Under the pieces are notes generated by a model. That model saw only the letters and a program-made list of their open reading frames with translations, ran no database searches and had not been told where the DNA came from. Below, one piece after another: positions 344 through 47,027 of a stretch of DNA of 58,697 bases. The position numbers and the translations under genes are program-made. The stretch is from NCBI GenBank assembly GCA_016936115.1, contig JAFGPQ010000179.1:1-58697 (forward strand), read 5' to 3'. Position 1 is the stretch's first letter. Each line of letters starts with the position of its first letter. This DNA is from Spirochaetales bacterium. Lineage in GTDB: Bacteria > Spirochaetota > Spirochaetia > DSM-2461.

Positions 344-395
344 AGATAATCGGTGGTTTTGTACGTTACGATTCCCCATAATAAAAATCTTACGA

Positions 396-424: not shown

Positions 425-452
425 AGTGCTAAACGCCAAGAGGAGTGACAGC

Positions 453-1661: not shown

Positions 1662-1669
1662 AATAATTC

Positions 1670-2302: not shown

Positions 2303-2304
2303 CC

Positions 2305-3147: not shown

Positions 3148-4360
3148 GTTTTATTTTCTCCATTGCCTTGATAACCTTCTCCCTGTCGTTGAAGGCGCTG
3201 ATGCGGAAGTAGCCCTCTCCGCACTTCCCGAAACCGCTGCCCGGGGTGATAACCACACCGGCCTTGTTCAGGAGCAAGTCAAAGGCTTCCCAGGAATCCA
3301 TACCGCTCTTTACCCAGATGTAGGGGGAATTGTCCCCGCCTACGCAGTCGTAACCCAGGGCGGCCACCCCCTCCCTAATAATCTTGGCATTTTCCAGGTA
3401 GTAATCGGTCAGCTCCCGAACCTGTTTCTGTCCTTCCGGCGTATAAACGGCGGCGGCGGCTTTCTGTACCGGATAGGAGGTCCCGTTGAATTTCGTGGTG
3501 TGGCGGCGGTTCCAGAGGGGCTTGAGGGGACAGGGCTGTCCCTCCTCATCATAAACGGTACATTCGTCGGTGAGGACTACGTAGCCGCAGCGGGTTCCGG
3601 TGAATCCGGCGTTCTTGGAGAAACTGCGGAATTCCACGCAGCACTTACGGGCGCCCTCGATCTCGAAGATGGAGTGGGGCAGCTCTTCGTCCCTGATGAA
3701 GGAGACATAGGCCGCATCGAAGAGGATGAGCGCTTTGTTCTCCAGGGCCCAGTCGACCCAGCTCTTAAGCTGCGCCTTGGTAGCAGTGGCCCCGGTGGGG
3801 TTGTTGGGAAAGCAGAGGTAAACCAGATCCGCCTTCAGTTCCGCAGAGGGCATGGGAACGTAGCCGTTCTTCTCGGTACTCTCCAGGTAGATGATCCCCT
3901 GGTAACGGCCGTTCTCGGCCTGACCCGTCCGGCCGGCCATAACGTTGGTATCCACGTAAACCGGGTATACCGGATCGGGCACGGCGATAACCGCGTCATC
4001 GGCGAAGAGCTCCTGAAAGTTTCCCGTGTCGCATTTGGCTCCGTCGCTGACGAAAACGTCACCCGCCGTGATATTACAGCCCCGGCTCTGGAAATCTCCC
4101 GCCGCGATGGCTTCCCGCAAAAAGGCGTATCCCTGCTCCGGACCGTAACCCTTGAAGGAGTTCTCATCGGCCATGTCGTCAACCCCCGAATGAAAAGCGT
4201 CGATGACGGTGGAAGGGAGGGGTTTGGTAACATCGCCGATACCCAGTTTAATCAATTCCCTGTCCGGATTCTCTTCCTGGAATTTCGCGACCCTTTTGGC
4301 AATATTGCTGAACAGGTAGGAGGCCTGCAGCTTGCTGTAGTTCTTGTTAACTCTGATCAT
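3134..4360 (-). CDS. dapL: LL-diaminopimelate aminotransferase
   Basis: This 408-residue fold-type I PLP aminotransferase matches the DapL family over its length: start MIRVNKNYSKLQASYLFSNI, the segment KLGIGDVTKPLP, and the Schiff-base lysine in SFSKNAGFTGTRCGY. DapL converts tetrahydrodipicolinate directly to LL-diaminopimelate in lysine and peptidoglycan synthesis, bypassing DapC/D/E; the route is known from plants, chlamydiae and Leptospira. It is the first gene of a three-gene minus-strand unit. No Shine-Dalgarno precedes the ATG; instead a -10 box ends 9 nt upstream, suggesting a leaderless mRNA. Confidence 0.95.
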   Translation of the reverse strand: MIRVNKNYSKLQASYLFSNIAKRVAKFQEENPDRELIKLGIGDVTKPLPSTVIDAFHSGVDDMADENSFKGYGPEQGYAFLREAIAAGDFQSRGCNITAGDVFVSDGAKCDTGNFQELFADDAVIAVPDPVYPVYVDTNVMAGRTGQAENGRYQGIIYLESTEKNGYVPMPSAELKADLVYLCFPNNPTGATATKAQLKSWVDWALENKALILFDAAYVSFIRDEELPHSIFEIEGARKCCVEFRSFSKNAGFTGTRCGYVVLTDECTVYDEEGQPCPLKPLWNRRHTTKFNGTSYPVQKAAAAVYTPEGQKQVRELTDYYLENAKIIREGVAALGYDCVGGDNSPYIWVKSGMDSWEAFDLLLNKAGVVITPGSGFGKCGEGYFRISAFNDREKVIKAMEKIKLALS

Positions 4361-4369
4361 AGTAAAATT

Positions 4370-4398
4370 ATTTTAGTTAATTTCCCTTTCCATGGCAA
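4370..4398 (-). promoter_or_regulatory. dapL promoter, leaderless geometry
   Basis: On the minus strand TTGCCA (4393-4398) is separated by 17 nt from TAAAAT (4370-4375), and only 9 nt remain to the dapL ATG at 4360. The predicted start site is within 2-4 nt of the start codon and there is no Shine-Dalgarno. Confidence 0.55.
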
Positions 4399-4510
4399 GT
4401 TTCCATACATATCTTTATATGCTTTTTAATTACAAAACTGTAACTTAACAAGCTTTCCGATCTTTGTTATCCTTGAAATCCGAAAAGACTTACTCACAGA
4501 AGAGGTTGAC

Positions 4511-5494
4511 ATGGAAAGGTTAAGCGAGGCGGAATTATCCGGATACAGTGACATTCTGGTACGTATCAAAAAGGAGATGGACAAGGTCATCATCGGTCAG
4601 GAAGCTCTGATCGACCGGCTTCTCATCTCACTCGTCTGTAATCAGCATGTTTTGATCGAAGGTGTTCCCGGTCTGGCCAAGACCTTGACCGTCAATACGC
4701 TGGCCGGTGTCATTTCAGGCGATTTCAAACGGGTTCAGTTCACCCCGGATCTTCTTCCCGCCGACCTGCTCGGTACTCTGATCTTTAATCCCCGGGAAGG
4801 GGATTTTACCACGAAGAAGGGTCCCCTTTTCGCCAATATCATTCTGGCGGACGAGATAAACCGGGCCCCCGCGAAGGTTCAGAGCGCCCTTCTCGAAGCC
4901 ATGCAGGAGCGGCAGATTACCATCGGCGATTCAACCTATCCCCTGCCCGACCCCTTTATGGTCATGGCAACCCAGAATCCCATAGAGCAGGAGGGCACCT
5001 ATCCGCTCCCCGAAGCTCAGGTGGACCGTTTCATGATGAAAGTGAAAATCGGATATCCCGGCAGGGACGAGGAGCTGGCCATCCTGCGGGCCCAGGGAAA
5101 AAACCGGGTGGATAACCGGGTGGATTCGGTGGTCAAGCCCGAGGATATCCTCATGCTCCGGGACGGGGTGGACCGTATCTATCTGGACGGCCGGGTCGAG
5201 GAGTATATCGTCGATCTGGTGCAGGCCACCAGGGATCCCGCAGCCTACGGTATGGGGGAACTGACCGATCTCATCCGCTGCGGCGCCTCTCCCCGGGCTG
5301 CCATCTATCTGACCCTGGCGGCTAAGGGTTACGCCCTGATTCAGGGCCGGTCCTATGTGACTCCCCAGGATGTGAAATCCATCGGAATGGATGTGCTTCG
5401 TCACCGTGTCATCATCAGCTATGAGGCGGAGGCGGAAGAGAAGAGCTCCGAGGAGATCGTGGGCGCCCTGTTCGACCATCTCGAGGTTCCCTAG
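4511..5494 (+). CDS. MoxR-family AAA+ ATPase
   Basis: This 327-residue cytoplasmic AAA+ protein has Walker A GVPGLAKT (residues 51-58), Walker B IILADEINRAP (about 110-120), the sensor segment ATQNP and the MoxR hallmark QVDRFMMK. MoxR ATPases act as chaperone-like partners of VWA proteins and are nearly always encoded next to DUF58 and VWA genes, as here. An AGAAGAGG ribosome-binding site lies about 6 nt before the ATG. It leads a seven-gene operon in which the next gene follows after 11 nt. The promoter is not clear in the 150-bp divergent region shared with dapL. Confidence 0.93.
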   Translation: MERLSEAELSGYSDILVRIKKEMDKVIIGQEALIDRLLISLVCNQHVLIEGVPGLAKTLTVNTLAGVISGDFKRVQFTPDLLPADLLGTLIFNPREGDFTTKKGPLFANIILADEINRAPAKVQSALLEAMQERQITIGDSTYPLPDPFMVMATQNPIEQEGTYPLPEAQVDRFMMKVKIGYPGRDEELAILRAQGKNRVDNRVDSVVKPEDILMLRDGVDRIYLDGRVEEYIVDLVQATRDPAAYGMGELTDLIRCGASPRAAIYLTLAAKGYALIQGRSYVTPQDVKSIGMDVLRHRVIISYEAEAEEKSSEEIVGALFDHLEVP

Positions 5495-5505
5495 GGAGTC
5501 TGGGT

Positions 5506-6381
5506 ATGGACAGGGAACTGATCAAAAAACTGCGCCGCATCGAAATCGTCACGGGGAGGCGGGTCAACTCCACCTTCGCCGGTGAGTATCAGAGCGCTTT
5601 CAAGGGAAAGGGCATCGAGTTCGAAGAGGTGCGCCTCTACCAGCCCGGCGACGATATCCGGGACATAGATTGGAATGTCACCGCCCGTTCGGGGGAGCCC
5701 CACATCAAGCGGTTCCGCGAGGAGCGGGAACTGACGGTCTATCTCATGGTGGATTTTTCCGAATCGGGACTCTTCGGTTCGGCGGGAAAGGACAAACGGG
5801 ATACGGCTGCGGAACTGGCGGCTGTACTGGCTTTCTCCGCCATCCGGAACAACGACCGGGTCGGTCTGATAGGCTATACGGACCGGGTAGAGCTATTCGT
5901 GCCAGCCGGCAAGGGTTCCCGCCATGCCCTGCGGATTATCCGTGATGTGCTGAGTTATCAGCCCCAAAGGAAGGGAACAGCCCTGAACTGCGCCCTGGAG
6001 TATCTGGGAAAAGTTCAGCAGAAGCGTGCCGTGGTGTTTATGATTTCCGACTTTTATGACAAAGATTACGATAAGCGCCTCTCCCCTCTGGCCATGAAGC
6101 ACGATATGACCGCTCTCCTTTTAACGGACCGACGGGAACGGGAGCTTCCCCGGGCGGGGCTTCTCTCCCTTCTGGAACGGGAATCGGGACGCCGCCGGAT
6201 TGTGGACAGCCGATCGGAGAAGGTGAGAGTCCGCTGGGCCGCTGTGGCCCGGGAGAGAATCGAGCTTCTGACCCGTTCCCTGGCGAAGCGGGGCATCCCC
6301 CTGGTGAATCTGGACAGTTCCGGCGACTGGATAAAAGAGCTGAGCCTCTACTTTCTTAAGAAACAGGCGGCGGGACTGTGA
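5506..6381 (+). CDS. DUF58 domain protein of the Bat operon
   Basis: This 291-residue soluble protein has the DUF58 signature YQPGDDIRDIDWNVTAR followed by a VWA-like half starting at YLMVDFSESG. DUF58 proteins are the constant neighbours of MoxR ATPases and are thought to be their VWA-type clients; no biochemical activity is established. GGGAG lies 8 nt before the ATG. The next gene starts at a GTG overlapping its TGA stop (GTGA), so the two are translationally coupled. Confidence 0.9.
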   Translation: MDRELIKKLRRIEIVTGRRVNSTFAGEYQSAFKGKGIEFEEVRLYQPGDDIRDIDWNVTARSGEPHIKRFREERELTVYLMVDFSESGLFGSAGKDKRDTAAELAAVLAFSAIRNNDRVGLIGYTDRVELFVPAGKGSRHALRIIRDVLSYQPQRKGTALNCALEYLGKVQQKRAVVFMISDFYDKDYDKRLSPLAMKHDMTALLLTDRRERELPRAGLLSLLERESGRRRIVDSRSEKVRVRWAAVARERIELLTRSLAKRGIPLVNLDSSGDWIKELSLYFLKKQAAGL

Positions 6382-7313
6382 CGAGAAGACTTCCCCTTTT
6401 TCTGTTATTTCTGGTGACTCTGTTCTCCTGTGCCGGGAAACAGGACTCCTCCCTGACCCAGAAAATCCGGGGAGAGGGCAACCGCAGCCTTATCCTCACT
6501 GCCGGGCCGGAAGAGGTCTGGGTCGGCGTACCCTTCAGCCTTAGCCTTGATATGAAAGGGGAGAAGGACGATGATGTGCTCTTTCCGAAAATCGATCAGG
6601 AGTTTCTGCCGGAAGGGCTGATTCTTAAATCCTTTAAGGCGGACGACAACCGGCTGACCCTGAGCGTGACCGCGGAAAAGTCCGGGGACTTTACGATTCC
6701 CCCGATTAGTGTTCTCTTCGATAATGGCGGTGATAGTGTGGAACTGCTTACCCGGCCGGTGGATTTCTCCGTGGTTTCCCTCCTTGACGGGGAAGATCAG
6801 ACCATGGCCGATATCTCTCCCTCCCTGCGTATCGGCTTTATGACTCTTCCCTGGGTTCTGGGCTTGTCGGGGGGTGCTCTGGCGGCAGTGCTGATTGCCG
6901 CCTGGCTGATTATGCGCTATCGGAGAAAACACAATGTTCCCCCCGAGCCGGTCTGGGTAGGGCTTGAAAGGGACAGGGACGCCCTTTCCCGGGACAACTC
7001 CCTGATGGAAGGGGATATGGGGCGCTTCTACGACCTCTCCACATCCCTGGTTCGCCGGGCTCTGGACGGGGTTTACGGGGAATCCACCGGGGAGAAAACC
7101 CGGGAGGAGTTCATCGGTTCCCTGCTGACATCATCTCAGTACGCTTCGGAAGTAAAGGCCTGGTTCGTCCGCTTTTTCGAGCGGGCCGATCTGGTGCGCT
7201 TCGCCCGCATGGCTATCGAAAAGGATACGATCGTGAGGGACCTTGATGAGACCCTTCGCTTCACCGGGCAGGCCGTGGAAGAGGCGAAGAGAAAAGAGGA
7301 GGAAGAGCCGTGA
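6378..7313 (+). CDS. Bat-operon lipoprotein with one membrane segment
   Basis: This 311-residue protein has a lipoprotein signal ending at Cys18 (VTLFSCAG), a periplasmic beta-rich region of about 130 residues resembling the repeat unit of BatD, a single membrane segment at about 155-175, and a cytoplasmic helical tail rich in Arg, Glu and Lys. It occupies the slot where many Bat operons encode a DUF4381-like membrane protein. The GTG start overlaps the DUF58 stop, and its own stop overlaps the batA GTG (GTGA at both ends). A lipobox in a protein that then re-crosses the membrane is unusual; Cys18 may be chance and the segment a plain signal anchor. No family was recognised with certainty. 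Confidence 0.7.
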   Translation: MTRRLPLFLLFLVTLFSCAGKQDSSLTQKIRGEGNRSLILTAGPEEVWVGVPFSLSLDMKGEKDDDVLFPKIDQEFLPEGLILKSFKADDNRLTLSVTAEKSGDFTIPPISVLFDNGGDSVELLTRPVDFSVVSLLDGEDQTMADISPSLRIGFMTLPWVLGLSGGALAAVLIAAWLIMRYRRKHNVPPEPVWVGLERDRDALSRDNSLMEGDMGRFYDLSTSLVRRALDGVYGESTGEKTREEFIGSLLTSSQYASEVKAWFVRFFERADLVRFARMAIEKDTIVRDLDETLRFTGQAVEEAKRKEEEEP

Positions 7314-8287
7314 CATTTCAGTTCCCCTTTGCCTTTCTTCTATTGCTCCTTCTCCCCCTTCTCGTCTATTTGAAACTGAAAAGCAGGGGTCGGGGACACT
7401 TCTATCCCTCCTTTTCGGCACTCCCTTCTGAGAGAACCCTGCGGGAAAGACTGGTCTACCTGCCCGAGGTTTTCTTTCTGGCCGCCCTGGTCTTTCTCAT
7501 CATCGCTCTCTCCCGCCCCCAGAAGGGGTTTTCCGAAGTCCGCAAGGTGACCAACGGTATCGCTGTGGAGATTGTGATAGACCGATCGGGGAGTATGGGG
7601 GCCCAGGTGAATCAGAGCCAGAACCGGCTGGACGTGGTGAAGGAGCTCTTCTCGGAATTCGTGAAGGGACGGCCGGATGATATGATCGGCCTTATCTCCT
7701 TCGCCCGCTATGCGGACACCAACGCCCCCCTGACCCTGGCCCATGACGTGCTTCCCGGCTTCATAAAGAGTATCAATCTGGTGACGACCGAGGCAGAGGA
7801 CGGTACGGCTATCGGCGACGCTCTGGCATTGGCCGCCGCCCGGCTTCATACGGCGGGGGAGGAGGAGGGCTACTCCATCAAAAGCCGGGTGGTCATTCTC
7901 CTGACCGACGGGGTCAACAACGTGGGGCAGCGCACTCCGGAAGAGGCTGCCGATCTGGCGAAGGAGTGGGGGATCAAGGTCTACACCATAGGCTTTACGG
8001 ATCAGTCCGTCCTGGGACAGCTTTTCGGCACCGGCGGCTATGCCGTGGATGAGGAGACCCTGCGGAGTATCGCCGATCGGACCGGAGGCAGTTCCTATAC
8101 GGCCACCGACGGAAAGAGCCTTCAGGCCGTTTTCGATCAGATCGACAGTATGGAGAAAACAGAGGTGGAATCCTACTCCTTCAGGCAGTACCGGGAGTTC
8201 TATCTCCCCTTTGCTCTGGCAGGGTTTATCAGTCTGTTCCTTTACATCCTCCTTTCGGCTACCCTGTTCAGGAGGTTGGAGGTATGA
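7310..8287 (+). CDS. batA: BatA, VWA-domain membrane protein
   Basis: This 325-residue protein has two N-terminal membrane segments (about 3-22 and 50-67), a von Willebrand A domain and a C-terminal membrane segment (about 295-318). The MIDAS metal site begins with DRSGS at 91-95, with LLTDGVNN supplying the later Asp. In this family the VWA domain is expected in the periplasm between the membrane segments. BatA is named for aerotolerance in Bacteroides; in spirochaetes its exact role is not settled. It is coupled to both neighbours by 4-bp overlaps. Confidence 0.9.
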   Translation: MTFQFPFAFLLLLLLPLLVYLKLKSRGRGHFYPSFSALPSERTLRERLVYLPEVFFLAALVFLIIALSRPQKGFSEVRKVTNGIAVEIVIDRSGSMGAQVNQSQNRLDVVKELFSEFVKGRPDDMIGLISFARYADTNAPLTLAHDVLPGFIKSINLVTTEAEDGTAIGDALALAAARLHTAGEEEGYSIKSRVVILLTDGVNNVGQRTPEEAADLAKEWGIKVYTIGFTDQSVLGQLFGTGGYAVDEETLRSIADRTGGSSYTATDGKSLQAVFDQIDSMEKTEVESYSFRQYREFYLPFALAGFISLFLYILLSATLFRRLEV

Positions 8288-33993: not shown

Positions 33994-35169
33994 ATGAATA
34001 AGAAAATCAGGGAACTTTCTGAATTTGAGCTATTCAGCGGTCTTTCACGGGAAGATCTGGCTTCCCTTTCAGAGTATTGCCTGCCCAGAGAATTCCGTAA
34101 GGGGCAGGTTCTCTTCTATGAGGGGGAAGAAGCGGACTGCCTCTATGTTATCGTAGGCGGTGAGGTAGAAGTCTGGTCAGATTTCAGGGCCAAGGAGAGG
34201 GATCTGCTTGCCATCAACAAGGACAAATGCATCGTCGGGGAAATGGCCCTTATCGATAGTCTTCCCCGAAGCGCCACTCTTATCGCATCCACCGATGTAA
34301 GCACCTATGTTATTAATAGGGACGACTTTGAAAAGCTTCTTATACGCTTCCCCAGTATCGCCGTCATTATTATGAAATCTCTTTCCAAGATTGTCAGAAA
34401 CAGTAATCAAAGCTATGTCACCACTCTTCGGGAGCAGAATCGAAAAATCGAGAAAACCTACAAGGAACTGATTGCCACACAGGAAAAACTTCACCGGGAG
34501 GAGAAGCTTGCTACCGTGGGCCAGTTCTCTTCCATGATACTTCATGATATAAGAAATCCTGTCTCGGTCATAAAAAGCTATGCCGAACTGGCTTTGAAAA
34601 AGATGGGTGATACCATGGATGATGGTCTCAAAAAATACTTCACCCGTATCATTGGAGAAACGGGCAAACTCAACTTTCTGGCGGCGGATCTTCTCGATTT
34701 TTCCAAGGGCGAGATCACCCTTAATTATACCATTATCGAATTAACCTCATTTATCAGGCGCATAGTGAAGGAACAGTACGCTCCCTTTGCCGCCAAAGAT
34801 GTGAAGATAGCCCTGAGCTGTAAGTATAAAGGAGCTGTTCTGCTTGATGCGGACCGTTTTGAAAGAGTTATCATCAACTTGCTGACAAATGCCCGTAAAG
34901 CGGTAGACCGGGGCGGGAGAATAAGAATCAGAACATGGGAAGAGAGAGAAATCCTGAATATAACCATAAGCGATGACGGCTGCGGTATGTCACAGGAGAC
35001 CCTGGACCATCTATACGAGCCCTTCTACAGCCGTTCAGGACCGGGCGGAACCGGTCTGGGAATGGTCATAATTAAAAACATTGTCGAAGTGCATGACGGA
35101 TCGATGAAGGTGACGAGTCAGCTTGATAAGGGATCCGAAGTTCATATCACCCTTCCCCTGAATCGTTAA
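33994..35169 (+). CDS. Histidine kinase with N-terminal cNMP-binding domain
   Basis: This 391-residue soluble kinase has a cNMP-binding domain (about 10-125; cassette GEMALIDSLPRSAT is intact), a coiled-coil linker (about 140-172), an H box (MILHDIRNPVSVIKS, His near 184), and an HATPase domain with N box NLLTNARKAV, G1 DDGCGM and G2 GTGLGM. It should autophosphorylate in response to cyclic-nucleotide binding and pass phosphate to a response regulator, which is not encoded next to it. It starts 15 nt after the flaA terminator with no clear ribosome-binding site or promoter, so expression may depend on read-through. A cAMP-gated kinase next to flagellar genes is suggestive. Confidence 0.9.
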   Translation: MNKKIRELSEFELFSGLSREDLASLSEYCLPREFRKGQVLFYEGEEADCLYVIVGGEVEVWSDFRAKERDLLAINKDKCIVGEMALIDSLPRSATLIASTDVSTYVINRDDFEKLLIRFPSIAVIIMKSLSKIVRNSNQSYVTTLREQNRKIEKTYKELIATQEKLHREEKLATVGQFSSMILHDIRNPVSVIKSYAELALKKMGDTMDDGLKKYFTRIIGETGKLNFLAADLLDFSKGEITLNYTIIELTSFIRRIVKEQYAPFAAKDVKIALSCKYKGAVLLDADRFERVIINLLTNARKAVDRGGRIRIRTWEEREILNITISDDGCGMSQETLDHLYEPFYSRSGPGGTGLGMVIIKNIVEVHDGSMKVTSQLDKGSEVHITLPLNR

Positions 35170-37453: not shown

Positions 37454-38644
37454 TCAGGGTCTTGTATAGGAATTTGTCGTATATGAGTACATACTGCTAT
37501 GGCTGTCCAACCTTGAGTTATCCCTTACTATCAGATTCAGATAAAAAGTATTCGTTGCGTAGGATATCATTTCATTCTGGAATATAGCCGGGAGTTGATC
37601 AAATGTTTTCGAAATGGGGCTGACGTAGGAAAACCATTCCTTCCCATCCACAGGAATGAAGTAGGGCGAGTAATACATCGTGTTCAGATTTGAAACATAG
37701 GAAGTTCCCCCAAGATATGTTGTACTGTAGCATAATTTATATTGTAGTGAAGCTGTTGGAGTCAAATCATCGGTCGCATTGATGTAACTGACAGCAAGAA
37801 TAAAAGCAGGAAGACTGGCAGGAGTCCAGTTTCCAGCAGGGGTTAATGTCAGTGTTCCATTGCTTATCGTCGGACTTGCAAGGTCTACGGCAAAGGTATA
37901 GGTATTGGATGCGCTGTTCGAATATCCTGCTGAAGTTGCGTTACAACTATCACTGTTAAGCTTTATTGAATAATTTCCTACGGCAAGCGCTGCCCCCGCC
38001 GGAGCAATCTGATATTCGTATGTTGAGAGGGGCGTGATTGTTGATGAAAGAGAATAACTGGCTGTGAAATCTGTATCGGAGAGAGAGCCGGCATTAACCG
38101 CATCGTTGAATGACACTTTCATTAAGGGGTTATTGGTGAAGAGATAATTATACGGATAAACGGAGCTATAAGAATCAGTGAGTATCGCTTCAATCGATGC
38201 TAAAAGCTCCTTTTTTATATTAATATCATATTCCAGATCATAATAGGTTTCTTCATCGCCATAATAGTTCACAAGCTCTTTCGTCAATTTCATTTTTTGC
38301 GAGGATTTCCATGTTGAATCGAAAATCTCGAACCAATAATAGGTTGAATCATTGCCCATACCGATATTTTCTGCTCCCGCTGAAGCGGTCAGTATGGTTG
38401 AGGAGAAATTAAATGAGGGGGGAAGAGTTAATGAGACCTCTCTTTTATCCCTGTCAATCATTCCATATGAATCAATCTTAAGTACATTGGAATTATTACT
38501 GGCCGACCACTGATAGAAACTGAAATCCTTCAGTTCGAAAACATATCCGCTCTCTTCCACCGGATCATAGCGCCCGAAGAAATCCTCGCAGGAAAGGAGA
38601 AGGAGAAGAGAAATCAGGATGGGAACGGCTCTGATATTTTTCAT
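37454..38644 (-). CDS. Ser/Thr/Asn/Tyr-rich lipoprotein of unknown function
   Basis: This 396-residue lipoprotein has lipobox LLLLSCED with Cys19. The mature part is beta-rich and unusually rich in Ser, Thr, Asn and Tyr, with a segment resembling bacterial Ig-like domains (PTISNGTLTLTPAG). There is no catalytic motif. The gene is visibly richer in A and T than its neighbours and prefers codons such as AAT, TAT and ATA, which suggests later acquisition or relaxed selection. It lies 71 nt after the barrel-protein gene on the same strand and may be the tail of that cluster, though the gap allows separate expression. No terminator is obvious, and the 165 bp up to fba hold the fba promoter. Confidence 0.7.
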   Translation of the reverse strand: MKNIRAVPILISLLLLLSCEDFFGRYDPVEESGYVFELKDFSFYQWSASNNSNVLKIDSYGMIDRDKREVSLTLPPSFNFSSTILTASAGAENIGMGNDSTYYWFEIFDSTWKSSQKMKLTKELVNYYGDEETYYDLEYDINIKKELLASIEAILTDSYSSVYPYNYLFTNNPLMKVSFNDAVNAGSLSDTDFTASYSLSSTITPLSTYEYQIAPAGAALAVGNYSIKLNSDSCNATSAGYSNSASNTYTFAVDLASPTISNGTLTLTPAGNWTPASLPAFILAVSYINATDDLTPTASLQYKLCYSTTYLGGTSYVSNLNTMYYSPYFIPVDGKEWFSYVSPISKTFDQLPAIFQNEMISYATNTFYLNLIVRDNSRLDSHSSMYSYTTNSYTRP

Positions 38645-38715: not shown

Positions 38716-40092
38716 TCAGAAACGGTAACCCATTCGCAGGGAGAGCTGGGTCAGGTTTACCGTGTCCCGGGACATGAGCCAGGTGTCCCGCCGACCGCTC
38801 AATTCTATGAGGTATCTGTCGTAATTCAACGTCATCCCCAGCCCCCAGGAAAGAAGGGTACCGTCCCCGTCCTGCATTTCCCCCTCTATTTCAAGGCGCA
38901 TGTTACGATAGCCCATGTTTGCTTCGGCAAAAAGATTTAGGGGGAATACATAGCGGGTTCTTCCGTAAAAGCCCATTGTGATGGTGTTGAAACGTACACC
39001 CTTGTCATTGGGGGGGAAAACCGCAATCCGTCCCTGCCAGCCGAAATACTGAAGCAGTGGGCTGTTTCCGTTCAGATCAGATTTGATGATGAGTTCAATT
39101 TCGGGGAAAGGGGAGAAAAGGCCGGAATTGTCTTCAAAGGTGTAATTAAATACGGATGTATCAAGAATAACATCGGGAAGGGGAAATCCGATAAGCAGAT
39201 CCGTCCCGGTCTTGAGACTCTCGTAAAAAGCGGTGTCACGTATTTCCCGGGGATCCACGATGGTGAAAGCCCCCGCAACGGAAGTTTCTTCCAGGGGGGG
39301 ATTTATCAGCACGAGATCATATACGCCTGCCTTCAGTCCTTCCAGGTTGAACCACAGGGAGAGCTCATTTTCATTGATATATTCGTTCAGGGGCATGCGG
39401 TACCGCTTTCCGTTCTGTTGCAGAAAGGCGACCATATCGGGGGCCAGATTTTCACCGTAGATGCGAACGTCCGGCAACTGGGTTCCCAGTTCGGCGGTAT
39501 GGGGATTCATATCGCCGATACGGGGATTCCGTTTCTCCCGGAGTTGAATGCCCTTCTCTGCAACTGTTCCGCTTCCGGAGGGGTTCAGAATATGAAGATC
39601 GTAGAAACCCGCTTCCATATTTTTGGTTTCCAGGGTTAATTCCAGGGTATTACCGCCGGTCATTCTGTATTCGGGATAGGTAGAGACCCCGTCTTTCTCC
39701 AGCCAGATCTCGGCTCCTTCCATGATATCCGCGGTCCGTACTTCCACCCGTTGTCGTTTATCACCCGCAAAGACCCGGTGTTCCGGAATGTCAAGAACGA
39801 CAGGGGTGAGATCCTTTAGAACGGTCAGGATGATCCAGTCCGTCTGAGCATCCGGTTTATCGAATTTATTGAAGAAGGTGATGCGGTAGCTGTATTCCCC
39901 CGGGGTCAGATCCAGGGTTACCGCCGGTTCGCTTAATCTTTCCACAAAAAGGGGAGTTCCGTCTTTTTGAAGCTCAATCTGATATGTATGATCGGCGTTC
40001 CCTTCCCACTGTAAATTTATGCCTTCCTTCCCGTATAAGGCGGAAAGAATAATGAGTGTAAACAGTGTGACTGGAAGTGCGCGGTTTTTCAT
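38716..40092 (-). CDS. Exported Fn3/IPT-like protein with outer-membrane barrel (B)
   Basis: This 458-residue protein has a signal peptide (ending SALYG) and an N-terminal Fn3-like module (about 25-95: LQWEGNADHTYQIEL, PGEYSYRITFFNKFDK). One or two IPT/TIG-like beta domains follow (about 185-280, IRGE-like 'VRIYGENLAPDM'). The C-terminal ~160 residues form amphipathic strands ending in Arg-Phe (LRMGYRF), typical of outer-membrane barrels. It is a paralogue of the upstream gene and abuts it with no gap (TAG then ATG). The protein should sit in the outer membrane with periplasmic or surface beta domains. The ligand is unknown. Confidence 0.75.
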   Translation of the reverse strand: MKNRALPVTLFTLIILSALYGKEGINLQWEGNADHTYQIELQKDGTPLFVERLSEPAVTLDLTPGEYSYRITFFNKFDKPDAQTDWIILTVLKDLTPVVLDIPEHRVFAGDKRQRVEVRTADIMEGAEIWLEKDGVSTYPEYRMTGGNTLELTLETKNMEAGFYDLHILNPSGSGTVAEKGIQLREKRNPRIGDMNPHTAELGTQLPDVRIYGENLAPDMVAFLQQNGKRYRMPLNEYINENELSLWFNLEGLKAGVYDLVLINPPLEETSVAGAFTIVDPREIRDTAFYESLKTGTDLLIGFPLPDVILDTSVFNYTFEDNSGLFSPFPEIELIIKSDLNGNSPLLQYFGWQGRIAVFPPNDKGVRFNTITMGFYGRTRYVFPLNLFAEANMGYRNMRLEIEGEMQDGDGTLLSWGLGMTLNYDRYLIELSGRRDTWLMSRDTVNLTQLSLRMGYRF

Positions 40093-41496
40093 CTATTTCT
40101 GCCAGCCTACCATGATATAGGGATTGATTACACTGGATGATTCCACCTGGTAATGGGTAATTAGAATGGCATAGCCCAGTTCGTATACCAGACTATTCCT
40201 TTTATACTGTATCCCCGTTTCTATGCGGTCGGAGAAATCCAGAGAGTGCTCTATGCGGTCATCCTTGAAGAAATAGAGTGAATAGGAGGCTCCGAATCCA
40301 AGGGAGACATAGAGATTCACCGGGAAATCCCAGTCGGAGAGATAGTAAATTCCCCCGTCCAGCTGAAAACGCGACAGGGTCAGGTAATCGGCAATGGCAT
40401 CGCTGTACCAGGTGTAATGCAATCCCGAGGCAAGGCCGCACTGGCGCAGTACGGGGAGCCGGTAAATTCCCGAATTTATGAATTTCTTTCTGAAACGAAG
40501 AGAAAAACCAAGGGGGGAATTCTTGAATATCTCCGCTTCCCGGTTCATGGGAAAGGAGGCGTGATAATCAAGGCCCAGGAACAGGGGCGTTTTCTCTCTC
40601 CTTTTTTTAATCCTTTCCTCTAGGCTCTCCTCTCTGTGGGTGAGGGTAAAACCGATAGGTTCCGATGACAATCCGCCCTCATTGACCACGCTGACAGTGT
40701 AAGTTCCTTCTTCCATGGTTTCCGGATCCAGGTAGAAGGAAATATCAGCGCCGTAATAGATTTCGGGATAACGGTATACTGCCTCGGAGGGGCCTTCGAA
40801 GGAGAGATCCGCCCGGGAGGAGAAATTTTTCCCCTTAAGGGAGATCTTACCGGGATTTTCCCCTTTGTATATGGTATCCGGCTTAATGCTGTCAATTTCA
40901 GGACGGGAGCGGGGTATGGAACGGATTACCGATTCCAGGGAGAAACTTCGCCCGGAGGGATTTTTAACGGAAAGATCCCAGATCCCGATTTCAGGCAGGA
41001 GGGCACCGCTGAATGAGACTTCGCAGCTGATATTTTCGCCGTTCCGACTTCTGCTCAATTCCCTTCCTTCTATCAAGTCCGAACCGTTGACCAGGTTGAA
41101 AAGGCAGGCTTCATCAAAATCCTTCCCTTTTATTGTGATTATAAGTTCCGTCTCGTCGTCAAAGAAAAAGGACGGGGAGTAATCTTCGATGAGCGGCTGG
41201 GGACTGGGGAATACGGTCAGGGGAGCCCAGTCGCTCCGGGAGGAGAGCTTCTCAAATTTGTTGAAGACGGAAATACGCACTTTATACTCACCGGGTGTAA
41301 GAAACAGGGGGAGAAAGGGCTCCTCCGTCTTCAGGGAGTAAAGTATAACCCCTTCCGTTTCTATTTCCACCAGATAGAAAGAGGCACCCTCCACGGCCTG
41401 CCATTCCAGTTTTTTCTCTTTCTTCTCCCCATCCTGTCCGAAAAGGGCAAGGGGCAGTAACAAAAGGAGAAGGGGAAGTATTCTTCTAATCTGCAT
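40093..41496 (-). CDS. Exported Fn3/IPT-like protein with outer-membrane barrel (A)
   Basis: This 467-residue protein has a signal peptide (ending LALFGQ) and the same layout as its downstream paralogue: an N-terminal Fn3-like module (LEWQAVEGASFYLVEIE, PGEYKVRISVFNKFEK), two IPT/TIG-like domains (IKGKDFDEACLF and LKGKNFSSRADL), and a C-terminal run of alternating strands (from about 310) ending VGWQK. The start overlaps the FecR/Fn3 gene by 11 bp. The paralogues keep the FNKF-K-DW motif but differ in most other positions, so the duplication is old. Confidence 0.75.
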   Translation of the reverse strand: MQIRRILPLLLLLLPLALFGQDGEKKEKKLEWQAVEGASFYLVEIETEGVILYSLKTEEPFLPLFLTPGEYKVRISVFNKFEKLSSRSDWAPLTVFPSPQPLIEDYSPSFFFDDETELIITIKGKDFDEACLFNLVNGSDLIEGRELSRSRNGENISCEVSFSGALLPEIGIWDLSVKNPSGRSFSLESVIRSIPRSRPEIDSIKPDTIYKGENPGKISLKGKNFSSRADLSFEGPSEAVYRYPEIYYGADISFYLDPETMEEGTYTVSVVNEGGLSSEPIGFTLTHREESLEERIKKRREKTPLFLGLDYHASFPMNREAEIFKNSPLGFSLRFRKKFINSGIYRLPVLRQCGLASGLHYTWYSDAIADYLTLSRFQLDGGIYYLSDWDFPVNLYVSLGFGASYSLYFFKDDRIEHSLDFSDRIETGIQYKRNSLVYELGYAILITHYQVESSSVINPYIMVGWQK

Positions 41497-44224
41497 ACTG
41501 TATGTCCGGCGAAAGAATGACCGGTGCTGCTCCTATAGACTTAATCGTAATGGAAAAATCCGTTCGGCTTTCCGGTGAAGTACGGACAATTCCGATGTCA
41601 TTATACTCTTTTCTCGCTTTGACGGTAAACTGAAAATTTCCTATATCCAGTTTGGAAAGGTCTGAGAAAGTGTAGCTGGTATCCCTGTAATTGTCCACGC
41701 TGAATATCCGGGAACCGGTGCTGTCATACAGGGCGATCGTATAAATCTCTCCCGCTTCGCCCTGACGCCAGCTGAACTGAATATCGTTACGATCCGACAT
41801 ATCGATCGTCTCCCCACTTAAGGGCGCTCTCATGGGGACAGGGGAGAGGGGAGCTACTGCGGTGACGGTCATTTCCGTGGCGCCTACCGGGGAGTACCTG
41901 TTTTTCTGATCGATACCCCGTACTTCTATCCTGTAGGTGTCCGGATAAAGTTCGTCCAGGGTGTAGGCTGTCCCTCTGGTAACACGGCGCAGCAGAACCG
42001 TATCGGACTCCTTCTGTTTAAGAACCAGTTCGTAGGAGGGAAAATCAAAGGCTGACTGCCAGCGTACTTCTAAACCGTTCTGCAGAATCGTCAGCCGGTT
42101 CTGCGAGCTGCCCGCTTCGGGAGAGGTGATGCGGGGTGCCTGATAGGTTATGATATCTCTGATTGTGAAGGTGGATCGGGATGTGACGCTAACCGTGGGA
42201 AAGCCCTTACCCTCATCCTCACGCAGGGACTGGAGTTCCATAGTGTAATTCCCTTCATTGAGGAGGGCGATATCCACATCGGTATAGGTCTTTTCCTGAG
42301 GAGGCATGGTAAAAATCGGATCCGATGAGCCATCCCTGTACAGAACCCCGGCATAAGCGCTGCTGTTGCTCACTTCGGACCAGGCCAGGGGCAGTTTCTC
42401 TTCACCGATCAGTGAGAGAACGCTGTCCGGTTCAGGTGAAATGAGACGGGGCGGGAGGATCGGCGTTTTTACGGAAAAAGACCGGCGCGTTCCCTCGAGA
42501 AGAACCTTGCCGTCCTTATCGAGCAGATCCACCTGCCACAGATAATCCCCCTCTTCCCCGATGTACTGGGCGTTTTCCAGGCGGTCCACCCGGCTGTTGG
42601 CCACGATCCTCTCCGTACCTCCCGTGGATTTCCAGAGCCGGAACCGGAAGTTTTCCCTTTCCGAGGAGTCCCAGATGAACACCAGACTCTCGCCCTTTTC
42701 CAGAGTGACGGGCTCATCCGGCCGGGGAGAGAGCATTTCCAGATTCCGTACCTTTTCCCGGCACAGGAGAGGACGGATTTCCGAATCCTCCACGGGGATA
42801 TTTCCATCGGTCAGAGGCGCGATCTGCCAGTAGTACTGTCCCGGGGAAAGATTATCGTTCAGGATAAAGAAATTCTTTGAGCTGTTTTCCCTCACCAGGG
42901 GTGAAGCCATATCACTGTTTTCCGAGAGCATGAACTGGTACAGGGGTATCTCCGGGTCACCCTTCCAACTGAAGCGGATACCATCGGTAAACTCCTCCGG
43001 GGTTACCACAGCTTTCGAATCCGGTGCGATAAGACGGGGAGGCTGGAATTCGATCTGCCGGGTGATTTTCAAACTGTCTTCGGGTGTCGGCTCTGTACGG
43101 GTCACATTCTCAATACCGTCGTATCGGGCGGAGACACGCCACCAGTATTCACCTTCCTCCAGTCCATCAACCTTAATCTGATTATAGTTCGTCCTTTCCG
43201 TTCTCAGGACACGGTTCCTGTCCGAGGCGGAACCGATCTCCAATTCCCAGTACTCCGCATCCTCCGCCCCCTGCCACATAAAAGTCTGGCTGGGAGGGGT
43301 GTCCCGGTAGGTGAATTCCGAACGGTCCCGGGGGGAGAGTGTTTTCAAAGGTAGATTGTCAATGATACGGATCTTTCCGGTGGAGCTGTAACTGTCCTTA
43401 CTCTCATTGCCCACACGCCAGAAGTAGTCACCCGGGACCAGATCCAGCTCATAGGAGAGCGTTCCGATATCATCGGCCCGGTAGACAATCCTCTCGAAAT
43501 CCGTATCAAGGGCAACCCACAGGGTTCTCGTCGGTTCCGGTTCCGGTTCTTCCCAGGCAAAGCGAATCTTCTGGGTTTCCCCGAATGTCAGCCAGCTGCT
43601 GTTGTTGGGGGGGGAGGTCTGTATAAAGCTCATCGTATTGACGCTGGTTTCACCGGTGGGCTGAATCTGGAACTGTTCGTTCTGTGCGATCCGGTCATTT
43701 CCCCGGGTGACTTCACCGTTCAGGACATCCATCTTAAAGATGCCCTTCTCGTCGGTGGCTATGGTGATTTCCGAAGAGTTGGAAAGTATGATGGGGAGAG
43801 GATTCTCCTCATTCATGTTTATAAGCTGCAGCGGCTCGGGGCGGACCTGGGTGGAGAGGGCGCTGATGGTTCCCGCAAAGTAGATGGTGTTCTCCTTCAG
43901 TCTCAGAATAATTCGGGATCCGTTTTCCAGAGAGATCTCCGTTCCGTCGATAAGGTTCAGAAGAATGGAAGAGAAGGAGTCCGAGGTTATCAGATCCCCT
44001 TCGAAAAGCTCATCCTGTTTGGTCAGGTTGTAGGTGTAATCGTCACCGGTCAGCTGTCTTTTCGGATAATAGGCCACGTCGGAAACAAGGCCGATCGGTT
44101 CCCCGGCTCCCCGGATCTTCTGGGATACCATGGACATATAGTTCTTACCGGCAAAGTAGAAAACCGTGAGGAGCAGAGCCGCGGCGGTAAGATCTTTGAG
44201 AAGTGTCCTAATCCAGAATTTCAT
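41486..44224 (-). CDS. FecR-domain protein with about seven Fn3-like repeats
   Basis: This 912-residue protein has an N-terminal membrane anchor (about 9-26) and a FecR domain (about 45-165: ELFEGDLITSDSFSSILLNL, DGTEISLENGSRIIL). A long periplasmic stretch of Fn3-like repeats follows (about 210-890), each closing with a motif like GxYxWxV: PGDYFWRVGN, EGEYWWRVSA, PGQYYWQIAP, EGDYLWQVDL, EGNYTMELQS and PDTYRIEVRG. FecR domains are periplasmic signal or structural modules. The repeats give a reach that could cross a periplasm. It overlaps the cyclase gene by 17 bp and the next gene by 11 bp, so all are coupled. It probably physically links the inner-membrane sensor with the two barrel proteins, but that is inference. 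Confidence 0.78.
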   Translation of the reverse strand: MKFWIRTLLKDLTAAALLLTVFYFAGKNYMSMVSQKIRGAGEPIGLVSDVAYYPKRQLTGDDYTYNLTKQDELFEGDLITSDSFSSILLNLIDGTEISLENGSRIILRLKENTIYFAGTISALSTQVRPEPLQLINMNEENPLPIILSNSSEITIATDEKGIFKMDVLNGEVTRGNDRIAQNEQFQIQPTGETSVNTMSFIQTSPPNNSSWLTFGETQKIRFAWEEPEPEPTRTLWVALDTDFERIVYRADDIGTLSYELDLVPGDYFWRVGNESKDSYSSTGKIRIIDNLPLKTLSPRDRSEFTYRDTPPSQTFMWQGAEDAEYWELEIGSASDRNRVLRTERTNYNQIKVDGLEEGEYWWRVSARYDGIENVTRTEPTPEDSLKITRQIEFQPPRLIAPDSKAVVTPEEFTDGIRFSWKGDPEIPLYQFMLSENSDMASPLVRENSSKNFFILNDNLSPGQYYWQIAPLTDGNIPVEDSEIRPLLCREKVRNLEMLSPRPDEPVTLEKGESLVFIWDSSERENFRFRLWKSTGGTERIVANSRVDRLENAQYIGEEGDYLWQVDLLDKDGKVLLEGTRRSFSVKTPILPPRLISPEPDSVLSLIGEEKLPLAWSEVSNSSAYAGVLYRDGSSDPIFTMPPQEKTYTDVDIALLNEGNYTMELQSLREDEGKGFPTVSVTSRSTFTIRDIITYQAPRITSPEAGSSQNRLTILQNGLEVRWQSAFDFPSYELVLKQKESDTVLLRRVTRGTAYTLDELYPDTYRIEVRGIDQKNRYSPVGATEMTVTAVAPLSPVPMRAPLSGETIDMSDRNDIQFSWRQGEAGEIYTIALYDSTGSRIFSVDNYRDTSYTFSDLSKLDIGNFQFTVKARKEYNDIGIVRTSPESRTDFSITIKSIGAAPVILSPDIQYAD

Positions 44225-47027
44225 ACTTCACTTCTTTCTCATCCACACCCTTCTCCAGAACACCGGAGAAATCCCCCTCAATGCCCACGTAGGAGCGCAT
44301 CTCATCAAGATTTTTCGGCCTGTCCGGATTGTCCATACGTCCCAGAACAGCATAGATCTGCTGGGGCTCGCTTTTTCCCTTAACCTTAATCTTGTTCATG
44401 GGCACCACGTGAAAGATCCCCTTGACCATGTTGTGTGTGTCCGTGCTGATCAGAATGTCCGTTCCCATGGGTTTGTTCAGCGGTTCGATGCGGGACGCCA
44501 GGTTCACCGCGTCTCCGATCACCGTGTACTCCATTCTATCCATGGAACCGATCTGGCCGGATACGACGGGGCCCGAATTGATGCCGCAGCCGATTTTGAT
44601 GATGGGCTTCTTATCGCTGCCCCGGCCGCGGTTGAAGCGAATCAGCGATTCCCGCATGGCCAGTGCGCAGTTGATGCAGTTCTCCGGATCGTTCCCCCGT
44701 GATTTGGGAACTCCCCAGAGTCCCATGATGGCGTCGCCGATGTACTTGTCCACATGGCCCATATTGTCGTTGACGCATTTGACCATCTCCGTCATATACT
44801 CGTTGAGGAACTCCACCACTTCGCCCGGCTCCAGCTTCTCCGAAATGGCTGTGAAGGAACGGATATCGGAGAAAAAGACCGTGGCGTCCTTCGTCTCTCC
44901 CCCCAGCTTCAGCTCCCCCTTCGCCGCCATCTCGGCCACTTCCTTGTTTACAAAACGGCCGAAGGCGTCCTTCATTCTCTCCCTTTCCTGCAGTCCCAGG
45001 CCCATGTCAATGAAGGCCTGTGTCAGTACGCCCGTTTCGTCACGGTTGCGGACCTTCAGTTTCAGCTCGTACTGGCCCTTCTCAATCAGTTTGGTAGCCA
45101 CCATGAGCCGTGCCAGAGGCAGGGATATGGTTTTAGAGAAGAAATATATCATGAGTATGGTAAGGGAGAGTATCATGACCATAAGATAGATGTTCTGTTT
45201 GAGAATATCGTTAATCGGACCGAAAAGGGCTGCCCGCTTCACCTCGGATACGAAGAAAAGATCCCAGTCCTTTATATAGGTGAAAGCGCCCAGCATGGTT
45301 TCCGCCGGAAGGCCTTCGGTTTCCCTGCTCGCGAATATGGTCTGATCGTAGGTAAGCTGCTGATTCGCCGTGGAGCCCGACTCTCTGACATGCACAAGGA
45401 CGGGATGATTCTCATAATCCCCGGGCTGGCAGGCGGTAACGAGACCCTGTTCCGGATGGCCGATCAGCTCGCCCCTGCCGTTCAGGACGAATATGGTCCG
45501 GCTTCCCGTGCTGTTGATGATATCATTCAGCAGTTCCGAAGTCTTCACAATAATAATGAGGGGTTTCTGACGGTTATCGTCCTCGTCCCAATAGGTCATG
45601 ACAATGCCCGTGACCGGATCGGTGTTTCTCGTATCGGTCAGGTAAAAGGAGGGATTGAAGGTTTTTCGATAATTCTGGTCACCCTGCCAGGCTTCATCTA
45701 TCATGTCGCTGAAATTCTCTTCCAGCACTGTCTGTATGTAATCGAAACTGAAATATCCCGGTGAACTGTACTGGATATCGCTGGAGATAAGCTGAAAGTA
45801 GAGTACGAAGGGGTAGTCGTTTATGAGGGTTTCTTCCAGGGTCACCCGGTTGTTGTTCAGGAGTACTCTCAAGGTCTCCCGCAGTCCATTGAAGCTGTTC
45901 TTCGTATTCGTGGAGAGTAAGTCCGCCACGGTAAGGCTGTTCTGCTCAATCTCCCGGGAAAGGGTGCTTTCGAAAAGGGAGAAGGAGATGACCGACATGG
46001 TACTCATGGCCAGGACGATAACGAGGGAAATGATAAGGATCAGTTTGAAGCCGATGGAGAATCTAACCCCCAGCTTCCGGCTTTTCGGCTTTTTCAGATC
46101 CAGCTCTTCGGGCAGGGCCTCCTCTTCCCGGGTCTGTTCGGCAATGAGATTGATTTTCTCCATGAGTTCAGGAGGCATGAAGGGGACTTCCCGGATAATC
46201 TCCCGAACCGGATTCTCCCGGGCGGGCGGATTTATCTCCTTTTTCTGTTCCGGCAGGACCTCCGGCTCCTTCAGTATTTTGAAAATTCTGCCTTTGATGT
46301 TTTCCCGGTTAAGAAGGGTGGTAACGTTTTCCTTACCCTTATAAAGAAAATAGAAGGGAAGTTTGACATGGCCTTCCTGAAAATAGTCATAGGGGAGCTC
46401 CAGAGGGCCCATCTGGGCGACTAAACCTCTCTGTACGAGGCTGTCCAGCTGATCAATTGTGCCGTAAAGGTCATCCTGCTGGTTCAGATCCATGAAGACC
46501 AGCACCCGCCAACTGTCATTCTCCGGTACGGTCAGATATTTGCGGGGAATCTTCATGGCATGGCTGAAATCATTATCCTTACCTATGGACAGGGGACGAA
46601 GATCCCACCGGGACTCTCCGGTGATGAGCCGTTTCCTGAAGGATGCCTCCAGGCCTGAGGTATCGAAATCGACAGGTGTCTCCGTTATGACCGCTTCCGC
46701 CCCGTTAACGAATAGGCCGTCCTTTTTATTTTCCTCGAGCATTCTCAGAAGTTTTACCATCTGCTCTATCAGTCTTGTCGCAAGCTTAAAATCTTCCGGC
46801 GGAAGAGTTTTCCCCTGGCGGCTCTTGATAAGGGCAATACCCAGTCCCGCCATGAGATTCAGGGGGGCGAGACCCATAAAGGCTCCCAGATAGGAGATTA
46901 TCCGGAACTCCTTGAGCAGGTTTCCCGAATCTCCCGAGGGTGAGGCTTTTATTTTTTTCTGTTCAACCAGGAGCGCTCTTACGTGCCTGCCGGCTTCTCT
47001 CTTCAGATCCAGCTGTAACTCCGTCAT
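44208..47027 (-). CDS. Membrane adenylate cyclase with Cache-like sensor and HAMP
   Basis: This is a 939-residue class III cyclase. Residues 1-320 are an unusual cytoplasmic region of unknown function. A membrane segment follows (about 323-345), then an extracytoplasmic Cache-like sensor (about 345-605), a second membrane segment (about 610-630), HAMP (about 632-690) and a cyclase domain (about 715-900). Key residues are present: metal Asp in VFFSDIRSFT, Lys and metal Asp in VDKYIGDAIMG, base-specifying Asp in YTVIGDAVN, and Arg in VNLASRIE. ATP is the expected substrate. I use ATG at 47027; a GTG five codons earlier is possible. It is the first gene of the envelope cluster. The ligand sensed is unknown. 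Confidence 0.9.
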   Translation of the reverse strand: MTELQLDLKREAGRHVRALLVEQKKIKASPSGDSGNLLKEFRIISYLGAFMGLAPLNLMAGLGIALIKSRQGKTLPPEDFKLATRLIEQMVKLLRMLEENKKDGLFVNGAEAVITETPVDFDTSGLEASFRKRLITGESRWDLRPLSIGKDNDFSHAMKIPRKYLTVPENDSWRVLVFMDLNQQDDLYGTIDQLDSLVQRGLVAQMGPLELPYDYFQEGHVKLPFYFLYKGKENVTTLLNRENIKGRIFKILKEPEVLPEQKKEINPPARENPVREIIREVPFMPPELMEKINLIAEQTREEEALPEELDLKKPKSRKLGVRFSIGFKLILIISLVIVLAMSTMSVISFSLFESTLSREIEQNSLTVADLLSTNTKNSFNGLRETLRVLLNNNRVTLEETLINDYPFVLYFQLISSDIQYSSPGYFSFDYIQTVLEENFSDMIDEAWQGDQNYRKTFNPSFYLTDTRNTDPVTGIVMTYWDEDDNRQKPLIIIVKTSELLNDIINSTGSRTIFVLNGRGELIGHPEQGLVTACQPGDYENHPVLVHVRESGSTANQQLTYDQTIFASRETEGLPAETMLGAFTYIKDWDLFFVSEVKRAALFGPINDILKQNIYLMVMILSLTILMIYFFSKTISLPLARLMVATKLIEKGQYELKLKVRNRDETGVLTQAFIDMGLGLQERERMKDAFGRFVNKEVAEMAAKGELKLGGETKDATVFFSDIRSFTAISEKLEPGEVVEFLNEYMTEMVKCVNDNMGHVDKYIGDAIMGLWGVPKSRGNDPENCINCALAMRESLIRFNRGRGSDKKPIIKIGCGINSGPVVSGQIGSMDRMEYTVIGDAVNLASRIEPLNKPMGTDILISTDTHNMVKGIFHVVPMNKIKVKGKSEPQQIYAVLGRMDNPDRPKNLDEMRSYVGIEGDFSGVLEKGVDEKEVKYEILD

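What the first reader, a model, noticed from the sequence alone, without database searches (positions are those of the whole stretch)
38716..47027. Cyclase, FecR/Fn3 and twin outer-membrane-like proteins as one envelope unit
Seen: four minus-strand genes overlap or abut (17 bp, 11 bp, 0 bp). They encode a Cache-HAMP adenylate cyclase, an anchored FecR protein with a long row of Fn3-like repeats, and two paralogous exported proteins that share an N-terminal Fn3-like module with each other and end in barrel-like strands. Inference: a trans-envelope assembly that senses a signal at the surface and feeds a cAMP pathway, with the Fn3-like repeats spanning the periplasm. I know no described system with this composition.
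Basis: partly seen in the sequence, partly recalled or inferred. Interest (0 to 1): 0.75.

Follow-up and report, generated by a model that had tools for sequence, protein, structure and literature searches.

The report
Spirochaete surface-to-cAMP trans-envelope signalling operon
Spirochaetes, including the syphilis bacterium, share a small gene set that appears to link an outer-surface protein, through a long rod crossing the cell wall space, to an enzyme that makes the signal molecule cAMP inside the cell; no paper we could search describes it as one system.

Summary
The four minus-strand genes have the reported 17, 11 and 0 bp junctions and encode: a Cache-HAMP class III cyclase with the adenylate-type catalytic residues (CYC), a membrane-anchored FecR-domain protein with seven Fn3-like repeats (FEC), and two paralogous exported proteins of an outer-membrane-barrel type (OM1, OM2). 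This is not a local accident. A FEC profile hits 137 of 296 sampled genomes of the phylum. In 148 of 152 FEC loci the cyclase lies directly upstream on the same strand, usually overlapping; one of the other four is a clear exception. An OM-family gene follows directly in 113 of those 148. In 20 genomes checked without regard to neighbours, full-length cyclases of this type occur only beside FEC. One complete genome has CYC and FEC as one open frame. The syphilis spirochaete carries the set as TP0485-TP0484-TP0483; TP0483 is the reported fibronectin- and laminin-binding protein. A downstream lipoprotein is enriched about five-fold. Best reading: a trans-envelope receptor passing an outer-surface or envelope signal along an Fn3 rod to an adenylate cyclase. 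Contact, signal and cAMP output are inferred, not shown. The nearest known kinds are FecR/CHASE2-cyclase gene clusters and S. meliloti NsrA-CHASE2 signalling, so it is a new variant.

The parts
44208..47027 (-). CYC: class III adenylate cyclase (cytoplasmic N-terminal region, TM, Cache-like sensor, TM, HAMP, catalytic domain); alternative GTG start at 47042
   Evidence: Pfam Guanylate_cyc 94 bits, HAMP 25.5, dCache_1 weak; 71% identical orthologue in a same-genus genome; full-length profile match only next to FEC
46076..47027 (-). cytoplasmic N-terminal region of CYC, about 320 aa, unknown, found in the window's family only
   Evidence: no Pfam match; conserved in family f1 homologues L079, L080-L086, L090; absent from the 600-700 aa cyclases of other loci
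45120..46076 (-). TM1, extracytoplasmic Cache-like domain, TM2 of CYC
   Evidence: hydropathy peaks at 318-354 and 608-636 of the 939-aa form; dCache_1 in 11 of 20 members
44352..45143 (-). HAMP and catalytic domain of CYC; metal Asp 721 and 765, Lys 761 and Thr 835 (adenine), Asn 842, Arg 846 (939-aa numbering)
   Evidence: Pfam; residues kept in 141-146 of 149 aligned sequences; best solved relatives are adenylate cyclases
41486..44224 (-). FEC: inner-membrane-anchored FecR-domain protein with seven Fn3-like repeats
   Evidence: family members match Pfam FecR 24 of 25; AF2 model pLDDT 81; 7 repeats; 17-bp overlap with CYC
43664..44188 (-). TM helix 13-38 and FecR domain of FEC
   Evidence: AF2 helix 13-38; alignment to FecR-positive members
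41534..43618 (-). seven Fn3-like repeats of FEC (residues 203-897)
   Evidence: repeat HMM hits 203-292, 296-392, 399-491, 498-589, 595-693, 700-792, 799-897; Foldseek hits to Ig/Fn3 chains
41489..41533 (-). C-terminal tail of FEC ending SPDIQYAD, a conserved hydrophobic-Tyr-small end motif
   Evidence: motif present in 101 of 118 FEC with an OM gene downstream and 9 of 29 without
40093..41496 (-). OM1: exported protein, Fn3-like N-module (28-107), Ig/TIG-like middle, probable C-terminal outer-membrane barrel
   Evidence: NCBIfam LIC11435_fam N-part 78.7 bits (below the 380-bit cut-off); PagL 26.4 and TIG 21.2 bits; AF2 N-module pLDDT above 90, long C-terminal strands
38716..40092 (-). OM2: paralogue of OM1, ends GYRF
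   Evidence: 26% identity with OM1 over about 280 aa, E 8e-25; LIC11435_fam N-part 60 bits; 48% identical orthologue in G296
37454..38644 (-). LIP: probable lipoprotein (lipobox LLSC), likely fifth member of the operon
   Evidence: 71 bp downstream on the same strand; kept in the same place in G296; lipoprotein directly downstream in 38% of loci vs 7.5% background

Best explanation
The operon encodes a trans-envelope signalling receptor of spirochaetes. The OM protein sits in the outer membrane by a C-terminal barrel and binds or reports something at the surface or in the outer membrane (in Treponema pallidum its homologue TP0483 binds fibronectin and laminin in vitro). Its periplasmic Fn3-like module meets the C-terminal end of FEC. 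FEC is a rod of 5-7 Fn3-like beads, anchored in the inner membrane, whose FecR domain lies next to the membrane and beside the Cache sensor domain of CYC. A change at the outer membrane is passed along the rod and through FecR to Cache-HAMP, which sets adenylate cyclase activity; cAMP then acts on cyclic-nucleotide-binding proteins. In the window's genus two OM paralogues and a lipoprotein are added. Shown here: gene content, domains, topology signals, catalytic residues, conserved linkage and co-occurrence. Inferred: physical contact, direction of signalling, ligand and cAMP output.
For: CYC directly upstream of FEC in 148 of 152 loci, most junctions overlapping by 4-53 nt; OM-profile gene directly downstream in 113 of 148. 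In 20 genomes all 11 full-length CYC matches adjoin FEC, and 9 genomes without FEC have none. CYC and FEC form a single 1596-aa open frame in a single-contig genome, L202. 83 of 114 of the strongest LIC11435-type N-module matches in the phylum lie within 1.5 kb of FEC. OM family ends 85% in F/W/Y against 9.4%. The conserved FEC C-terminal motif tracks the presence of an OM gene. Rod model and repeats. Adenylate-type catalytic residues conserved. Lipoprotein enrichment downstream. T. pallidum homologues TP0483-TP0485 and the binding literature. The window genome has 12 cNMP-binding matches over cut-off, so cAMP readers exist.
Against: No interaction, localisation or activity data. The OM1 model is weak in the barrel (mean pLDDT 69) and no barrel structure was matched; OM1 itself lacks the terminal aromatic. 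The OM location of TP0483 is disputed. Some loci have CYC-FEC but no OM gene beside it, including a clade whose FEC C-terminus is a PQQ-type propeller. FEC relatives without CYC are very rare but exist (L050). Gene linkage alone does not prove a complex. The CYC-FEC single frame could be a sequencing error.
Confidence: 0.6

Rival explanations
1. Envelope-tension or spacing sensor: the FEC rod tethers inner to outer membrane, and its stretch or loss of contact, not a ligand, sets the cyclase. The OM protein is an anchor only.
For: Rod has mostly 7 or 5 repeats, as if its length were fixed; a C-terminal end motif that could dock; OM proteins vary far more in sequence than CYC; a propeller or other end replaces OM in some clades.
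Against: Repeat number differs between clades; the OM barrel regions diverge strongly, as surface receptors do; TP0483 binds host proteins in vitro.
Confidence: 0.2
2. Adhesin operon with a housekeeping cyclase: OM proteins and lipoprotein are surface adhesins, FEC is a structural periplasmic scaffold, and the cyclase only regulates their production; no signal passes through the envelope.
For: TP0483 adhesin data; downstream lipoprotein enrichment.
Against: The tightest linkage is CYC with FEC, not CYC with OM (148 of 152 vs 113 of 148); the cyclase has its own extracytoplasmic sensor; the full-length cyclase type is never found without FEC in the checked genomes; CYC-FEC single frame.
Confidence: 0.12
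3. FecIRA-type cell-surface signalling to a sigma factor, with the cyclase as bystander.
For: FecR domain, inner-membrane anchor and an outer-membrane partner.
Against: No TonB-dependent receptor or ECF sigma factor seen in the operon or directly beside it; FEC has only about 12 residues before its TM helix, too short for an anti-sigma domain.
Confidence: 0.03

Closest known systems
CHASE2 adenylate cyclase + FecR-domain protein gene clusters (Campylobacterota, PMC9239204)
   Same: Adenylate cyclase with an extracytoplasmic sensor next to a FecR-domain envelope protein; read by those authors as one cAMP pathway. The window's own genome has such a locus too: CHASE2 cyclase and, divergently, FecR, an exported protein and lipoproteins (L198).
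   Different: Here the sensor is Cache-HAMP, FecR is fused to a 5-7 bead Fn3 rod, a dedicated OM-barrel family follows, and gene order and overlaps are nearly fixed across a phylum.
Sinorhizobium meliloti NsrA-CyaD1/CyaD2/CyaK-Clr
   Same: An outer-membrane beta-barrel relays an outside protein signal to inner-membrane adenylate cyclases.
   Different: CHASE2 cyclases, no FecR/Fn3 rod described in that relay (FecR protein SMc02177 was not needed for perception), no shared OM family.
FecA-FecR-FecI cell-surface signalling
   Same: FecR domain between an outer-membrane protein and a cytoplasmic output.
   Different: Output is a cyclase, not a sigma factor; no TonB-dependent receptor; FecR carries an Fn3 rod.
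LysM-FecR protein + CHASE2 histidine kinase operon (Burkholderia, PMC5192318)
   Same: FecR-domain exported protein beside an extracytoplasmic-sensor signalling enzyme, start codon inside the preceding gene.
   Different: Histidine kinase output; LysM instead of Fn3; no OM barrel.
Treponema pallidum TP0483, TP0484, TP0485
   Same: Direct homologues in the same order: OM (fibronectin/laminin binder), FecR-Fn3 protein, cyclase.
   Different: Shorter rod and no N-terminal cyclase extension; single OM gene; in the papers searched the three are not treated as one system.
LIC11435 family (NCBIfam NF047756, Leptospira)
   Same: N-terminal about 150 residues of OM1 and OM2 match it.
   Different: Far below the family's equivalog cut-off; C-terminal half not matched; function unknown.

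Membership tests
Class III adenylate cyclase | Catalytic domain with two metal Asp, adenine-specifying Lys plus Asp/Thr/Ser, transition-state Asn and Arg | tested here: met
   All six present in the window protein and in 141-146 of 149 aligned sequences; Pfam 94 bits. Residue roles are from general knowledge of class III cyclases.
Class III adenylate cyclase | Makes cAMP | not testable with these tools
   Needs an enzyme assay.
FecR-domain protein | Pfam FecR domain after a TM anchor | tested here: met
   24 of 25 family members match PF04773; the window member does not by itself but aligns throughout.
FecIRA cell-surface signalling | Adjacent ECF sigma factor and TonB-dependent receptor | tested here: not met
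   None in the operon or next to it.
CHASE2 cyclase-FecR cluster | CHASE2 sensor domain in the cyclase | tested here: not met
   No CHASE2 match in any of 20 CYC members; dCache_1 in 11. The same genome has a separate true CHASE2 cyclase.
CHASE2 cyclase-FecR cluster | FecR-domain envelope protein encoded beside an adenylate cyclase | tested here: met
Outer-membrane beta-barrel protein (OM1/OM2) | Signal peptide and C-terminal aromatic beta-signal | tested here: met
   Family 93 of 109 end in F/W/Y vs 9.4%; OM1 itself ends in K, OM2 in F.
Outer-membrane beta-barrel protein (OM1/OM2) | Barrel fold | tested here: inconclusive
   Long C-terminal strands but low confidence; Foldseek found only Fn3/Ig matches; weak OmpX/Ail sequence matches E 0.003-0.014.
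LIC11435 family (NF047756) | Score above the 380-bit cut-off | tested here: not met
   78.7 and 60.2 bits, N-terminal half only.

The most novel reading that the evidence does not exclude
A spirochaete-specific class of trans-envelope receptor in which a surface-exposed, host-protein-binding barrel is mechanically coupled by an Fn3 rod through the periplasm to an adenylate cyclase, so that adhesion itself is read out as cAMP; in the syphilis spirochaete this would be TP0483-TP0484-TP0485.
Probability: 0.35. Interest if true: 0.9.

Novelty: new variant of a known kind. Interest (0 to 1): 0.7.

Why it matters
It puts three separately listed T. pallidum genes, one of them a disputed fibronectin-binding protein, into a single testable signalling pathway shared by much of a phylum. 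It offers a concrete answer to how spirochaetes, whose periplasm holds the flagella, might read their surface from the inner membrane, and gives a reason why TP0483-type proteins have both an outer-membrane barrel and periplasmic Fn3-like modules. It also extends FecR-linked signalling from sigma factors and CHASE2 enzymes to a rod-coupled cyclase.

Tried and rejected
A search of viral contigs with FEC found nothing. FecIRA membership was rejected: no sigma factor or TonB receptor. Pycsar (PADLOC PycC hits) was rejected: only the shared catalytic domain matches, and there is no effector gene. The PagL hit of OM1 (26 bits) was not taken as lipid A deacylase: it covers 94 residues, occurs in 1 of 14 members, and is read as generic barrel similarity. 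The FEC-OM single frame in L170 was set aside because an internal signal peptide remains. The structural match of OM1 to glucan-binding and antibody folds is only Fn3/Ig similarity. Mirror-tree tests were not run, because linked genes co-inherit anyway.
Full report
WHAT IS THERE. Four minus-strand genes lie at 38716-47027, with junctions of 17 bp and 11 bp overlap and 0 bp. CYC is a class III nucleotidyl cyclase with HAMP and a weakly scoring double-Cache sensor. It has hydropathy peaks flanking the sensor, and a cytoplasmic N-terminal region of about 320 residues that matches nothing in Pfam. All six catalytic positions are of the adenylate type (Lys761 and Thr835 for adenine) and are kept in 141-146 of 149 homologues. 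FEC has one membrane helix and then only beta structure (AF2 mean pLDDT 81). Its family carries a FecR domain (24 of 25 members), and the window protein has seven Fn3-like repeats. Foldseek places the model among Ig/Fn3 rods such as contactin, titin and Robo2. OM1 and OM2 are paralogues over about 280 residues. The FEC repeat profile weakly recognises their N-terminal modules, and their N-terminal halves match the Leptospira LIC11435 family.

THE BARREL. Domain models alone are weak here (PagL 26 bits, OMP_b-brl E 0.08; OmpX/Ail E 0.003-0.014), and the AF2 model is poor in that part. The better evidence is the C-terminal beta-signal: 93 of 109 family members end in F, W or Y, typically GWQF or GxRF, against 9.4% of other genes in the same loci. 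OM2 fits this; OM1 ends in K.

CONSERVATION. FEC was found by sequence in 133 of 296 sampled genomes of the phylum, and by profile at E below 1e-15 in 137 of 296, in 75 of 139 genera. I fetched loci by FEC similarity only and then looked at the neighbours. CYC lies directly upstream on the same strand in 148 of 152; the commonest overlap is 35 nt. An OM-profile gene is directly downstream in 113 of those 148. The four loci without CYC are: L185, where my gene caller missed a CYC that searches place beside FEC; L138, cut by a contig end; L189, where FEC is broken by stops and CYC is gone; and L050, a genuine exception. The loci come from 19 family labels of the phylum, though Treponema is heavily represented. 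Because neighbours were not used for selection, the linkage is not circular.

CO-OCCURRENCE. In 20 genomes searched independently with CYC and FEC profiles, 11 full-length CYC matches all adjoin FEC. Nine genomes without FEC have only catalytic-domain matches or none. In G146, a single-contig genome, CYC and FEC form one 1596-residue open frame joined at the point where the genes normally overlap. This is a suggestive fusion, but a sequencing error cannot be excluded.

CLOSE RELATIVES. A same-genus genome (L090) has the identical order aldolase, lipoprotein, OM2, OM1, FEC, CYC at 91, 23, 48, 47, 55 and 71% identity. Another genus of the family also has tandem OM genes (L081, L084, L092); a third has one OM gene plus a small exported protein. 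The twin OM genes are therefore a local elaboration of a one-OM core.

A FIFTH PART. Genes directly downstream of the core encode lipoproteins in 50 of 132 cases, against 7.5% in the background and 5% upstream. The window gene at 37454-38644 is one of these.

THE END OF THE ROD. FEC proteins of 700-950 residues end in a short conserved motif (a hydrophobic residue, Tyr, then Gly/Val/Thr and 1-3 residues). Of 118 FEC with an OM gene nearby, 101 have it; of 29 without, 9 do. Where FEC ends in a PQQ-type propeller instead, neither motif nor OM gene is seen. This fits a docking site for the OM protein but is an inference.

SYPHILIS SPIROCHAETE. G056 is a single contig of 1,139,633 bp, the length I recall for T. 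pallidum Nichols. Its CYC, FEC and OM homologues lie in the same order downstream of the P83/100 antigen gene. Position and content identify them as TP0485, TP0484 and TP0483; a paper independently predicts TPASS_0484 to be a FecR protein. TP0483 binds fibronectin and, through residues 179-374, laminin; its outer-membrane location is disputed (PMC10118025). No paper found treats the three as one system.

MECHANISM. The simplest reading of topology and order is OM barrel - OM Fn3 module - FEC rod - FecR - Cache-HAMP - cyclase. Repeat number is mostly 7 or 5; at roughly 3.5-4 nm per bead (general knowledge) this is a rod of some 20-30 nm, a length suited to crossing a wide periplasm. Cyclic-nucleotide-binding proteins are plentiful in the genome (12 matches over cut-off), including a cNMP-binding histidine kinase at 33994-35169, also present near the operon in G296. 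Contact, ligand and output remain untested.

KNOWN KINDS. CHASE2 adenylate cyclases cluster with FecR-domain proteins in Campylobacterota (PMC9239204), and the window's own genome has such a locus (L198). In S. meliloti the outer-membrane barrel NsrA acts on CHASE2 cyclases (PMC13001267). The spirochaete unit works like these but is not a CHASE2 member, and FecIRA membership fails on tested features. I call it a new variant of a known kind.

Noticed in passing
L198 (G000:C89:12500-24500), 831-7941: A second, CHASE2-type system in the same genome: CHASE2 adenylate cyclase divergent from a FecR protein, an exported 425-aa protein and two lipoproteins.
   Followed up: partly
window 33994-35169 (+): Cyclic-nucleotide-binding domain fused to a histidine kinase, 1.1 kb beyond the aldolase gene; the same neighbour is present in same-genus locus L090. 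A candidate cAMP reader.
   Followed up: partly
window 240-1661 (+): 473-aa protein with two cyclic-nucleotide-binding domains.
   Followed up: no
window 46076-47027 (-): About 320-residue cytoplasmic N-terminal region of the cyclase, conserved only in the window's family, no Pfam match.
   Followed up: partly
L061, L062, L066, L070, L074: In one group of loci FEC ends in a PQQ/BamB-like beta-propeller instead of the Tyr motif, and no OM gene follows.
   Followed up: partly
L202:3701-8491 (+): CYC and FEC as one 1596-aa open frame in a single-contig genome.
   Followed up: partly
L189 (G252:C56): FEC broken by stop codons while the cyclase is absent: loss of both together.
   Followed up: partly
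L044, L103, L112, L120, L132: Large downstream Treponema lipoproteins share a motif near the start (EPVKEFFxEYTNTAAIE-like) and have no Pfam family where scanned; probably one unnamed lipoprotein family tied to this operon.
   Followed up: no
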